A stretch of 64,000 bases of DNA from Vibrio neptunius (lineage in GTDB: Bacteria > Pseudomonadota > Gammaproteobacteria > Enterobacterales > Vibrionaceae): contig NZ_JXXU01000088.1 of assembly GCF_000967495.1 (NCBI RefSeq), positions 1 to 64,000 of the forward strand, in the 5' to 3' direction. The position numbers and the translations under genes are program-made. A model generated the notes under the pieces. It was given only the letters and a program-made list of their open reading frames with translations, had not been told where the DNA came from and ran no database searches. Below are positions 861 to 46,813 of this stretch, piece by piece (positions within the stretch are counted from its first letter, which is position 1; every line of letters begins with the position of its first letter).

Positions 861-1808
<948 letters not shown>

Positions 1809-43554: not shown

Positions 43555-43711
43555 GCCATATTTTGAAAAAATTGGCGAAAAGCTAATCGCCAGATAAAAG
43601 TGCCGCAATCATGCCCTTTAGCCATGTATTTATCAACGTTTTTTAGTGTATTATTCAGCAATAAAGTCAGATAAGAAGACCTTACTAGTTCTAACTTCAG
43701 CCGGATTTACA

Positions 43712-44683
43712 ATGGATTTTAAAGCTATCCAAGCTCTAACTGCCGACGACATGGCAAAAGTGAATGAAACGATTCACGCTCAACTCAACTCTGACGTATC
43801 TTTAATCAACCAATTAGGTTTTTACATCGTTAGTGGTGGTGGTAAACGTATACGTCCTCTTTTAGCCGTATTATCTGCTCGTGCTCTGGGTTATCAGGGC
43901 CAAGCACATACGACAGCGGCTGCGTTTATTGAGTTTATTCATACTGCAACATTACTTCATGACGATGTGGTTGATGAGTCACATATGCGCAGGGGCAAAG
44001 CTACAGCCAACGCCGCTTTCGGGAATGCTGCCAGCGTTTTGGTTGGTGATTTTATTTACACACGCTCTTTTCAGATGATGACAGAGCTAGGATCAATGAA
44101 GATCCTCAAACTAATGAGTGATTCAGTCAACGTTATCGCCGAAGGCGAAGTCCAACAGCTCATGAACTGCAATGATCCAGATACGACTGAAGAAAGTTAC
44201 ATGCAGGTTATTTACTCAAAAACGGCTCGATTGTTTGAAGCAGCAACACAAATAGGGGCTATTCTCAATGAAGCCCCTGCTGATATGGAACTTGCCTTAC
44301 AGAATTACGGCAAGTACCTAGGGACGGCTTTCCAACTGATTGATGACGTGATGGATTATACCTCTGACGGTGAAGACATGGGTAAAAATGTCGGTGATGA
44401 CTTAGCTGAAGGTAAACCTACCCTACCGCTACTTTACGCAATGCTTCACGGTTCGCCAGAACAAACCAGCATGATTCGTGAAGCCATTGAGAAGTCGAAC
44501 GGTATGGAGAAACTTTCAGCCATCATGGAAGCGATGGAACAAACGGGCGCTCTGAAATATACCCGCGAAAAAGCTTATCAAGAAGCGGACAAGGCTATAG
44601 CAGAACTGAAGTTACTGCCAGAGTCTCAGTATAAAGAAGCGCTCGTCGCATTAGCCCACATGGCAGTTCACCGGACTAAATAA
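43712..44683 (+). CDS. ispB: Octaprenyl diphosphate synthase IspB
   Basis: Makes the C40 side chain of ubiquinone-8 and menaquinone. I use the ATG at 43712 (MDFKAIQALTADDM, 323 residues), which aligns with E. coli; the frame opens 22 codons earlier but that N terminus is unlike the family. The two Asp-rich motifs are LLHDDVVDE and LIDDVMD, and GGGKRIRP is the diphosphate-binding stretch. It is divergent from rplU. Confidence 0.96.
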   Translation: MDFKAIQALTADDMAKVNETIHAQLNSDVSLINQLGFYIVSGGGKRIRPLLAVLSARALGYQGQAHTTAAAFIEFIHTATLLHDDVVDESHMRRGKATANAAFGNAASVLVGDFIYTRSFQMMTELGSMKILKLMSDSVNVIAEGEVQQLMNCNDPDTTEESYMQVIYSKTARLFEAATQIGAILNEAPADMELALQNYGKYLGTAFQLIDDVMDYTSDGEDMGKNVGDDLAEGKPTLPLLYAMLHGSPEQTSMIREAIEKSNGMEKLSAIMEAMEQTGALKYTREKAYQEADKAIAELKLLPESQYKEALVALAHMAVHRTK

Positions 44684-44723: not shown

Positions 44724-44961
44724 ATTCCAGTGCAGCAAGTCGAAGGTCTATTGGCTCTACTATTACTAACGTTGAGCGAAGTCTTGTGCCGCGCTTTATC
44801 AGCAATAAGCCTTTACATACCTATTTCAACCTAGCAGTAGATCACCAACACGGGCAAACATTACCTATGTTTTGCGACCAATCGTTTGATTCGTTCGAGT
44901 AAGCTTCCACTGTTACACCTGAAATTAGTAGTTAGCTACCATTTACTCTTTGATCATGAAA
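44724..44961. other. Gene-free spacer before the OlsF-like gene
   Basis: About 240 bp. A 63-codon open frame (44711-44902) begins inside the ispB terminator, has no ribosome binding site and no recognisable features; I do not call it. The region leads into the Pho-box-like array. Confidence 0.5.
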
Positions 44962-44990
44962 GCGTCATAGCTCATTCATAAATCTCTCAT
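44962..44990 (+). promoter_or_regulatory. Three-unit Pho-box-like array upstream of the OlsF-like gene
   Basis: GCGTCAT-AGCT-CATTCAT-AAAT-CTCTCAT: three seven-base units with four-base spacers, an exact 11-bp period. The PhoB unit consensus is CTGTCAT, so the units match 5, 5 and 6 of 7. All end in TCAT. The array ends 68 bp before the start codon, a normal position for a PhoB-activated promoter. Confidence 0.65.
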
Positions 44991-45058
44991 TCTTCTGACC
45001 TCAAATTGCAATCAAACCGACCTAACCTCGGTTTGCCAATCGTAGAACCGAGGACAGT

Positions 45059-46813
45059 ATGGAAGTTTCGAGCCCTTTTCGTTTACCACGTAAAACACCT
45101 TTTGGTTTAGGAGAAAACTTAGCCGAGTGGGCCACTGGTCTGCAAAAGCTTGATCGGTATTACGCACTGCGGCCAACTGACTGTGACAGCAAAGCTTTTC
45201 TGCGATTTACTCTAGAGATACTTGGTATTGATTATCAGGTAATTAAAGGCTCTTTGACGCATATTCCTACCCAAGGAGCAACAGTGGTCGTGGCCAATCA
45301 TCCTCTTGGCTGCGTAGAAGGGGTGATCCTGGCAGAGCTGCTGCTGCATGTCAGAGACGATGTACAGATATTGGCAAACCAGTATTTAAAAACTGTCCCT
45401 GAACTCGATAAGCTGTTTATCGGTGTCGACGTATTTGAAGGCCAAAACGCCCACAAAGCGAACCTCAAAGCGCTTCGACAGGCTCACCAACATTTAGATC
45501 AAGGTGGGCTATTACTCCTTTTCCCCGCAGGAGAAGTCTCTCAACTGGTTGATCGGAAGACTCAACGTATTGAAGATAAAGAATGGAGCCGCTCGGTGAG
45601 CAGCTTAGTACGTAAGGCCAGAGCGAGTACCATACCAATGTTTATCGATGGTCAAAACTCCAAGCGCTTCTATATGGCTGGTAAAGTCCACCCACTACTT
45701 AGAACCTTAATGCTTGGCCGCGAACTACTCAATAAAAACCAGCGGCCAATCAATATATCCATCGGTTCGGCAATCAAATTTAAAGAAGTGAACGGCCTAA
45801 CAGACGCGCAAATTGTCAACTACCTTCGCCTTAATACCTACTTATTACAAAACAAAACCTTAAGTGCTGAAAACACTGAAGAGTTGGAGTCCAACCCTTT
45901 ACCTATCGCACATGCTTTACCCGTTCAAGATCTTAAAATGGACCTTACCAAGCTGCCTGCTGAGCATCACTTATTGACCAGTGGTGAGTTTGATGTCTAT
46001 TGCACCGACGCCGAACATATTCCTTCATTACTGCATGAAATAGGCAGGCTGAGAGAGAATAACTTTCGCAAAGTAGGTGAAGGCACAGGCCTCGCTTTAG
46101 ATATCGACGACTTTGATCGTTACTACAAGCATTTGTTTATCTGGGACAGGGATAATCAATGCCTAGTTGGCGCCTATCGCCTTGGATTAGTCGATGAGCT
46201 TATGCAGCACAAGGGACTGTCCGGGCTCTATTCGAGAACTCTTTTCCATTATGGCGAAGACTTTCTCAACACCATGGGCAAATCGATTGAAATGGGTCGA
46301 TCGGTGATTGATGAACGGTATCAAAAAAGTATGGGCGCTCTGCTCTTGCTCTGGAAAGGGATCGCCACTTTCGTCCACCGCAACCCAAGCTATACGCATT
46401 TGTTTGGCCCTGTCAGTATCAGTAACGACTACAGTGAGCAAGCGAGGCAACTGCTTGCGGATACCATGACTCTCCATCATTACGACTCAGAGAAAGCCGA
46501 ATACGTGACACCATCGAACCCTCTGCCAGTTCAACCTAAAAACTGGAATACTAGCATGCTGACCGCGTTGGGCGATCTCCAGCTGCTGTCGCGAGTAATT
46601 GCACGCATTGATGACGGAAAAGGGGTTCCCGTATTGTTGCGTCAATACTTAGGTCTTAATGGTAAGTTAGTGTCATTCAATATCGATCCATCTTTTAACA
46701 ATGCATTGGATGGATTGATCATGGTTGATCTTCAACAAGTGCCCGTCAAAACATTAGCCCGCTATATGGGTACCTCTCAAGCCCAACAGTACCTAGCGCA
46801 TCACACCCCTTAA
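45059..46813 (+). CDS. olsF: OlsF-like bifunctional acyltransferase (ornithine lipid synthesis)
   Basis: The 584-residue protein is a fusion. The N-terminal PlsC-type acyltransferase domain (about 50-270) has motif NHPLGCVEG (H81) and FPAGEVS. The C-terminal domain (about 310-570) is GNAT/OlsB-like N-acyltransferase, with stretches such as RLRENNFRKVGEGTG and GAYRLG. This two-domain plan is that of OlsF, which N-acylates ornithine and then O-acylates lyso-ornithine lipid; V. cholerae has such a gene, near glmS. The Pho-box-like array upstream fits phosphate-starvation replacement of phospholipids by ornithine lipids. The alternative name is hemolysin-family acyltransferase. Confidence 0.8.
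   Translation: MEVSSPFRLPRKTPFGLGENLAEWATGLQKLDRYYALRPTDCDSKAFLRFTLEILGIDYQVIKGSLTHIPTQGATVVVANHPLGCVEGVILAELLLHVRDDVQILANQYLKTVPELDKLFIGVDVFEGQNAHKANLKALRQAHQHLDQGGLLLLFPAGEVSQLVDRKTQRIEDKEWSRSVSSLVRKARASTIPMFIDGQNSKRFYMAGKVHPLLRTLMLGRELLNKNQRPINISIGSAIKFKEVNGLTDAQIVNYLRLNTYLLQNKTLSAENTEELESNPLPIAHALPVQDLKMDLTKLPAEHHLLTSGEFDVYCTDAEHIPSLLHEIGRLRENNFRKVGEGTGLALDIDDFDRYYKHLFIWDRDNQCLVGAYRLGLVDELMQHKGLSGLYSRTLFHYGEDFLNTMGKSIEMGRSVIDERYQKSMGALLLLWKGIATFVHRNPSYTHLFGPVSISNDYSEQARQLLADTMTLHHYDSEKAEYVTPSNPLPVQPKNWNTSMLTALGDLQLLSRVIARIDDGKGVPVLLRQYLGLNGKLVSFNIDPSFNNALDGLIMVDLQQVPVKTLARYMGTSQAQQYLAHHTP

What the first reader, a model, noticed from the sequence alone, without database searches (positions are those of the whole stretch)
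44962..44990. Three-unit Pho-box-like array ahead of the OlsF-like acyltransferase
GCGTCAT, CATTCAT and CTCTCAT recur with an exact 11-bp period, the PhoB half-site geometry, 68 bp before the start codon. The downstream protein is a PlsC plus GNAT fusion of the OlsF type. Ornithine lipids replace phospholipids when phosphate is scarce, so site and gene product support each other.
Basis: partly seen in the sequence, partly recalled or inferred. Interest (0 to 1): 0.6.

Follow-up and report, generated by a model that had tools for sequence, protein, structure and literature searches.

The report
PhoB switch for phosphate-saving membrane lipid
A marine Vibrio carries, in front of the gene for a phosphorus-free membrane lipid, a conserved row of predicted binding sites for the phosphate-starvation regulator; this fits what is already known in the cholera bacterium and shows that the site is longer and more widely conserved than it first looked.

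Summary
GCGTCAT, CATTCAT and CTCTCAT lie exactly where stated at an 11-bp period. They are the centre of a longer array: six in-register units (44951-45016), 6 bp, and a -10-like TAACCT (45023-45028). A matrix built only from Vibrio phoB and pstS promoters ranks it first of about 128,000 window positions, for three and for six units. Those promoters share the same spacing. A four-unit array lies upstream of 55 of 57 relatives at least 60% identical, and of 3 of 21 less similar ones, mostly the paralogue. 51 of 52 relatives with an array have TAnnnT in the expected phase. The protein is a PlsC-like plus GNAT fusion, 71% identical to V. cholerae VC0489, a published PhoB-dependent ornithine-lipid synthase (PMC12186959). 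So this is a new member of a known kind. New from this work: the six-unit anatomy, its conservation across the olsF1-bearing Vibrio examined despite changed neighbours, and the split from the site-free paralogue. In passing, the array model led to a similar site ahead of a PAP2-glycosyltransferase operon. Induction in this organism is untested.

The parts
44951..44961 (+). PhoB-like unit 1, TGATCATgaaa
   Evidence: In register with the three reported units; aligned with conserved units in 26 relatives; 4 of 7 match CTGTCAT.
44962..44972 (+).
   Evidence: 5 of 7 match CTGTCAT.
44973..44983 (+).
   Evidence: highest of the six by the phoB/pst matrix, 5.1 bits.
44984..44994 (+).
   Evidence: C36, T37 and A39 invariant in 26 relatives; 6 of 7 match CTGTCAT.
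44995..45005 (+). Weaker unit 5, CTGACCTcaaa
   Evidence: In register; CTGAAGC, CTGACCT, CTGCAGC and the like in relatives; 16 pstS2 sites also have an odd next-to-last unit, nTGAAAC, though the search pattern required it.
45006..45016 (+). Weaker unit 6, TTGCAATcaaa, promoter-proximal
   Evidence: In register; T57, G58 and A61 invariant in 26 relatives.
45023..45028 (+). -10-like hexamer TAACCT, 6 bp after unit 6 (3 of 6 to TATAAT)
   Evidence: Without fixing the spacing, 51 of 52 olsF1 upstreams with an array have TAnnnT in this phase, at most 9 in any other phase; same 6-bp spacing in Vibrio phoB and pstS promoters.
45050..45054 (+). Ribosome-binding-site-like GAGGA
   Evidence: Read directly from the sequence.
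45059..46813 (+). olsF1: bifunctional acyltransferase, PlsC-like plus GNAT, 584 aa, orthologue of V. cholerae VC0489
   Evidence: Pfam Acyltransf_2 45-266 and Acetyltransf_5 331-432; NCBIfam OlsF 420.3 bits, below its 620 cut-off, as is VC0489 itself at 418.9; 71% identical to VC0489.
43646..44683 (+). ispB (octaprenyl diphosphate synthase), upstream neighbour, ends 267 bp before unit 1; not part of the unit
   Evidence: 562.7 bits, cut-off 412; found in the held upstream stretch of 20 of the 57 olsF1-like loci.

Best explanation
The array is a PhoB operator-promoter for olsF1. When phosphate is scarce, phosphorylated PhoB binds head to tail on consecutive 11-bp units. The promoter-proximal units take the place of a -35 element and bring in sigma-70 RNA polymerase at the TAACCT -10, so OlsF1 is made. 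OlsF1 then joins two acyl chains to ornithine, and the phosphorus-free ornithine lipid partly replaces phospholipid. Shown here: the array, its spacing, its conservation and its likeness to phoB/pstS promoters; the domain make-up and orthology of the protein. Inferred: binding, activation and lipid output in this organism, from established knowledge of PhoB and published work on the V. cholerae orthologue.
For: The window site ranks 1 of 127,936 (three units) and 1 of 127,870 (six units) with a matrix trained only on phoB and pstS promoters. 55 of 57 olsF1-like upstreams have a four-unit array at p<=0.05 by shuffles, 52 of 57 at p<=0.005. Only period 11 scores: 50 of 56 above threshold, 0 to 3 of 56 at other periods from 7 to 15. 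TAnnnT in the expected phase in 51 of 52 upstreams with an array, 25 of 26 among those not used to describe the layout. Ungapped 78-column alignment of 26 relatives without the window and its 96% kin. A profile of those 26 finds the window site as the one strong hit in the 5.2-Mb genome (E=4.4e-10), with the pstS2 promoter as a weak one (E=1.14). phoB is present (373.9 bits, over cut-off). VC0489 makes ornithine lipid in E. coli and is needed for it at low phosphate (PMC12186959).
Against: No binding or expression data for this species. The units are individually weak (4 to 6 of 7 to CTGTCAT) and the -10 is poor (3 of 6). V. cholerae, where PhoB dependence was reported, has no good array at the usual place: score -3.2 there, three recognisable units, and a strong extra pair at -160; in the 55 of 57 it counts as a hit only through that upstream stretch (score 2.8, p=0.01). 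Two of 57 olsF1-like upstreams have no significant array (L157, L158) and L122 scores only -3.8 (p=0.02).
Confidence: 0.93

Rival explanations
1. The array is read by another tandem-binding OmpR-family response regulator, and phosphate control is secondary or absent.
For: The genome has 78 matches to the PhoB model, only one over the cut-off, so many related regulators exist. Units 1, 5 and 6 deviate from CTGTCAT.
Against: Unit sequence, 11-bp period and 6-bp spacing to the -10 are those of phoB and pstS promoters in the same genus. The V. cholerae orthologue is reported PhoB-dependent (Barbosa 2018 as cited in PMC12186959).
Confidence: 0.04
2. The repeats are a chance run in an AT-rich intergenic stretch.
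For: A two-unit pair alone is only rank 12 in the window.
Against: No shuffle of 100 reaches the pattern counts; conservation in 55 of 57 relatives, including 35 of the 37 in whose held upstream stretch no ispB was found.
Confidence: 0.01
3. The site is a PhoB operator, but the enzyme makes a different amino-acid lipid (for example a glycine lipid).
For: GlsB and GlsA models also match (127.6 and 96.4 bits, below cut-offs of 300 and 260), and the OlsF cut-off is not reached.
Against: The OlsF model scores far higher (420.3 bits), and the proven VC0489 gives the same profile of scores: 418.9, 129.4 and 95.7.
Confidence: 0.05

Closest known systems
VC0489 (olsF) of Vibrio cholerae and its PhoBR-dependent expression
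   Same: Orthologous enzyme (71% identity), same side of the tree, a DctP-type gene follows in both; published ornithine-lipid synthesis at low phosphate and PhoBR dependence.
   Different: The V. cholerae array is degenerate upstream of the last three units, with a strong extra pair at -160; the gene before it reads as rpoD (by eye, no family search), not ispB.
phoB and pstS promoters of Vibrio
   Same: CTGTCAT-like 11-bp units, then 6 bp, then an AT-rich -10.
   Different: Two to four units, the promoter-proximal one near consensus (mean 6.1 and 6.8 of 7); olsF1 has six units, means 3.9 to 5.5 of 7.
VCA0646-type OlsF (second ornithine-lipid synthase, low salinity)
   Same: Paralogous enzyme; present in this genome on another contig (55% identity, L002/L164), last in a gene row with YHS- and DoxX-like genes (labels recalled, no family search).
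   Different: No array (score 5 or more) in the 160 bp upstream: 0 of 20 on that side of the tree; none over threshold within 3.7 kb in this genome.

Membership tests
PhoB box (Pho box) | Tandem direct repeats of 11 nt, seven well conserved (CTGTCAT type) | tested here: met
   definition from PMC4415409 passages.
PhoB box (Pho box) | Fixed spacing from the box to the -10 of a sigma-70 promoter | tested here: met
   TAnnnT 6 bp after a unit end in 51 of 52 upstreams with an array, as in phoB/pstS of the genus; -10s are assigned by sequence only.
PhoB box (Pho box) | Cognate regulator PhoB encoded in the genome | tested here: met
   One match over the TIGR02154 cut-off.
PhoB box (Pho box) | Binding by phosphorylated PhoB and induction at low phosphate | not testable with these tools
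   Reported for V. cholerae VC0489 (cited in PMC12186959); not measured in this species.
OlsF bifunctional ornithine-lipid synthase | N-terminal PlsC-like and C-terminal GNAT acyltransferase domains in one chain | tested here: met
OlsF bifunctional ornithine-lipid synthase | Orthology to an OlsF with proven activity | tested here: met
   71% to VC0489, same side of a branch with SH-aLRT 97.
NCBIfam NF052615 equivalog (OlsF) | Score over the curated cut-off of 620 bits | tested here: not met
   420.3 bits; the proven VC0489 also fails at 418.9, so the protein is not filed under this model but as a VC0489-type OlsF.
OlsF bifunctional ornithine-lipid synthase | Makes ornithine lipid | not testable with these tools
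   Shown for VC0489 and VCA0646 in E. coli (PMC12186959, passages).

The most novel reading that the evidence does not exclude
Vibrio run a two-branch, PhoB-controlled lipid replacement programme: OlsF1 behind a long array of weak units, and a second operon (PAP2 phosphatase plus MJ1255/VC2487-family glycosyltransferase) behind the same kind of array. The second would turn phosphatidate into diacylglycerol and then into a phosphorus-free glycolipid. The long weak array would make olsF1 a late, high-threshold gene. A PhoB-type site ahead of the second operon is well supported by sequence; its use by PhoB, the glycolipid product and the timing are inference.
Probability: 0.25. Interest if true: 0.55.

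Novelty: new member of a known kind. Interest (0 to 1): 0.33.

Why it matters
It extends a regulatory link known from V. cholerae to the olsF1-bearing Vibrio at large (100 of 196 genomes searched have a match of at least 60%; upstreams of 57 loci examined). It gives an exact operator to mutate and shows that the two OlsF paralogues differ in having or lacking a PhoB-type site. It also suggests that V. cholerae, the studied species, is among the few with an eroded array.

Tried and rejected
Simple sigma-70 scanning found no promoter between ispB and olsF1, as expected where PhoB units replace the -35. A first matrix was dropped because its pattern missed the four-unit pstS sites; with it the six-unit array already ranked 1 and the three-unit stretch 3. 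Four-unit stretches at -707/-708 in four paralogue loci (L179-L182, scores 7.8 to 11.0) and at -458 in L177 (7.2) have no TAnnnT at the right spacing and were not pursued. Of the weak genome hits of the array model, the second (L196) led to the PAP2 operon; the third (L197) and fifth (L199) were only scanned for arrays, showed none with a TAnnnT at the spacing among the best ones printed, and were left. The placing looked for a -10 only at the 6-bp spacing, so it could not test that spacing; one search was run for that. Barbosa 2018 is not held, so whether it names a Pho box could not be checked; 'pho box' has 0 occurrences in the main text of PMC12186959. Paper searches: ornithine lipid/olsF/VC0489/Pho box; PAP2-glycosyltransferase operon.

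Full report
What is there. TCAT-N7-TCAT-N7-TCAT occurs twice in the window, both times here, against a mean of 0.03 in 100 dinucleotide shuffles; four TCAT in register occur once, and in 0 of 100 shuffles. In the 5.2-Mb genome the looser TCAY triple has 9 matches, two of them these; the reversed control pattern has 3.

Matrix test. From 41 Vibrio genomes I held 30 phoB loci (40 genomes had a match) and 29 PstS-family loci, and built an 11-column unit matrix only from sites in those promoters: 14 distinct phoB pairs, 16 four-unit pstS2 sites and 5 further pstS pairs. No olsF sequence was used. The sites were picked by pattern, the pstS2 ones with the -10 spacing in the pattern, so the matrix is fitted to those promoters. 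In the window, both strands, the reported three-unit stretch ranks 1 of 127,936 positions and the six-unit stretch from 44951 ranks 1 of 127,870. For four and five units the top places are also registers of this array. For two units alone the rank is 12 of 127,958. So the strength lies in the length of the array.

Relatives. A scan of public genomes gave 45 loci, of which 18 are Vibrionaceae at 56 to 96% identity. A search of 196 genomes of the genus gave a match in 161, at least 60% identical in 100 by my count of the listing. I held the 30 best and fetched 40 more stretches, so most were not examined. After dropping identical upstreams and any shorter than 160 bp, 57 upstreams of proteins at least 60% identical and 21 at 50 to 60% remained; one at 41% was in neither group. 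A four-unit array at p<=0.05 against 200 shuffles each was found in 55 of 57 and 3 of 21. Of those 3, L019 is a V. maritimus locus with a split match whose upstream resembles that of the orthologue L020, L174 falls on the olsF1 side of the tree, and L169 is marginal at p=0.04. The two misses are L157 and L158; V. cholerae and L122 pass with low scores (2.8 and -3.8). With the seven-base core alone only period 11 scores: 50 of 56 above threshold, against 0 to 3 of 56 at any other period from 7 to 15 (there L020 and L116 were left out, L143 and L007 stood in by their copies L150 and L153, and L174 was added). The sequences are related, so these counts are not independent. But ispB was found in the held upstream stretch (1.4 to 6 kb) of only 20 of the 57, and 35 of the other 37 still carry an array, so it travels with olsF1 rather than with the neighbourhood.

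Anatomy. In 26 diverse relatives, chosen by me for clear arrays and without the window or its 96% kin, the layout is six 11-bp units, 6 bp, then TAnnnT. 24 of 26 were placed so by script; for two (L003, L136) I took the second-ranked -10, which falls where the others do. The 78-column alignment has no gaps; one A in each of units 1 to 4 and in unit 6, and T, A and T of the -10, are among the invariant columns (the -10 letters were partly selected by the placing). Information content repeats at lag 11 (0.74) and 22 (0.65). Because sought the -10 only at that spacing, I tested the phase without fixing it: of 52 olsF1 upstreams with an array score of at least 5 (of 56), 51 have TAnnnT in the phase 6 bp after a unit end and at most 9 in any other phase; among the 26 not in the alignment the count is 25. 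In the window the site reads TGATCATgaaa GCGTCATagct CATTCATaaat CTCTCATtctt CTGACCTcaaa TTGCAATcaaa ccgacc TAACCT. This genome's phoB promoter reads AGGTCACaaaa GTGTCATaatt + 6 bp + AATAAT, and its pstS2 promoter CTGTCATacag GCTTCAAcgaa GTGAAACacaa ATGTCATattc + 6 bp + TAAAGT. The same spacing in E. coli phoA and pstS is recalled, not looked up.

Genome-wide check. A sequence-only profile of those 26 relatives, run over the window's own genome, gave five hits at E<=10: the window site at E=4.4e-10 (41.7 bits), then 0.29, 0.30, 1.14 and 3.0; of 1126 candidates of the first look, 150 were scored. The hit at 1.14 is the pstS2 promoter. The whole genome could not be scanned with the phoB/pst matrix, because no file was laid.

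The protein. It has Acyltransf_2 (45-266) and Acetyltransf_5 (331-432). It scores 420.3 bits on NCBIfam OlsF, under the 620 cut-off; the V. cholerae protein with proven activity, given without its last seven residues, scores 418.9, so the miss says nothing against the function. The V. cholerae genome (or a very near relative) was recognised among unnamed ones by primers printed in PMC12186959: five VC0489 primers match exactly and the sixth with two mismatches; the VCA0646 forward primer matches its second copy with one. A quick maximum-likelihood tree of 77 proteins, rooted at the midpoint for drawing only, puts the window with VC0489 on one side (57 rows, SH-aLRT 97), 52 of which have an array score of at least 5. 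The other side of 20 holds VCA0646 and this genome's second OlsF, and none has one in its 160 bp upstream. L019, L020, L116, L043 and identical proteins were left out before the tree; VC0489 is counted twice among the five without.

Against the reading. V. cholerae, where PhoB dependence was reported, has no good array at the usual place: AGCTCAT caga, CTGTCGC tatt and TTGCAAT atgc remain, then 6 bp and TAGCCT (four-unit score -3.2), while a strong pair TTGTCACacaa ATTTCAActta lies at -160. So sequence strength and regulation do not map simply, and the promoter used in V. cholerae may differ. Units in the window are individually weak (4, 5, 5, 6, 5, 4 of 7), and the -10 matches TATAAT at 3 of 6.

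Known ground. PMC12186959 (abstract, passages, sections 7 and 9 seen) reports that VC0489 makes ornithine lipid at low phosphate, that VCA0646 does so at low salinity, and cites Barbosa 2018 for PhoBR dependence. PMC13157583 (passages) places vc0489 in the Pho regulon. PMC4415409 (passages) gives the PHO box as two 11-nt direct repeats, with CTGTCAT in E. coli. PMC10294691 (passages) notes strict spacing between pho box and core promoter. The biology is therefore known; this locus is a new, well-supported member.

A further lead. The second-best genome hit of the array model (weak, E=0.29) overlaps a four-unit array that ends 44 bp before the ATG of a PAP2-family gene, which is followed by an MJ1255/VC2487-family glycosyltransferase. 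In 30 of 30 loci held (of 53 genomes with a match among 61 searched) the best four-unit array in the 1.5 kb upstream, taken without regard to a -10, is followed at 6 bp by TAnnnT. With one same-species copy dropped, 29 of 29 beat all of 200 shuffles each. V. cholerae is among them (L226). One paper names VC2487, as a ChIP target of ChiS (PMC11856585, one passage); searches showed none linking it to phosphate.

Noticed in passing
L196 (own genome C23): array 1515-1558 and TAATTT 1503-1508, minus strand, ahead of PAP2 gene 940-1470 and glycosyltransferase 1-936: PhoB-like four-unit array with the same 6-bp spacing to a TAnnnT, 44 bp before a PAP2 phosphatase plus MJ1255/VC2487-family glycosyltransferase operon; found in 30 of 30 Vibrio loci held. 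Possible second lipid-remodelling branch under PhoB.
   Followed up: partly
L002 / L164 (own genome C3): Second OlsF (55% identical), last in a gene row with YHS- and DoxX-like genes (labels recalled), VCA0646 type, no PhoB array over threshold within 3.7 kb upstream.
   Followed up: yes
L150, about 160 bp upstream of VC0489: V. cholerae has a strong two-unit PhoB-like pair (TTGTCACacaa ATTTCAActta, 16.7 bits) well upstream and only three recognisable units at the usual place; no TAnnnT at the usual spacing after the pair.
   Followed up: partly
L090-L110, pstS2 promoters: 16 distinct four-unit sites have an odd next-to-last unit nTGAAAC (the search pattern required it), resembling the aberrant unit 5 of olsF1.
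   Followed up: no
L150:370-2298: In the V. cholerae-like genome used, a gene that reads as rpoD precedes VC0489. As recalled, the VSP-II island sits between VC0489 and rpoD in pandemic strains, so this strain would lack it.
   Followed up: no
window:47078-48157: A DctP-type TRAP solute-binding protein gene follows olsF1 here and in a good part of the relatives, V. cholerae included.
   Followed up: partly
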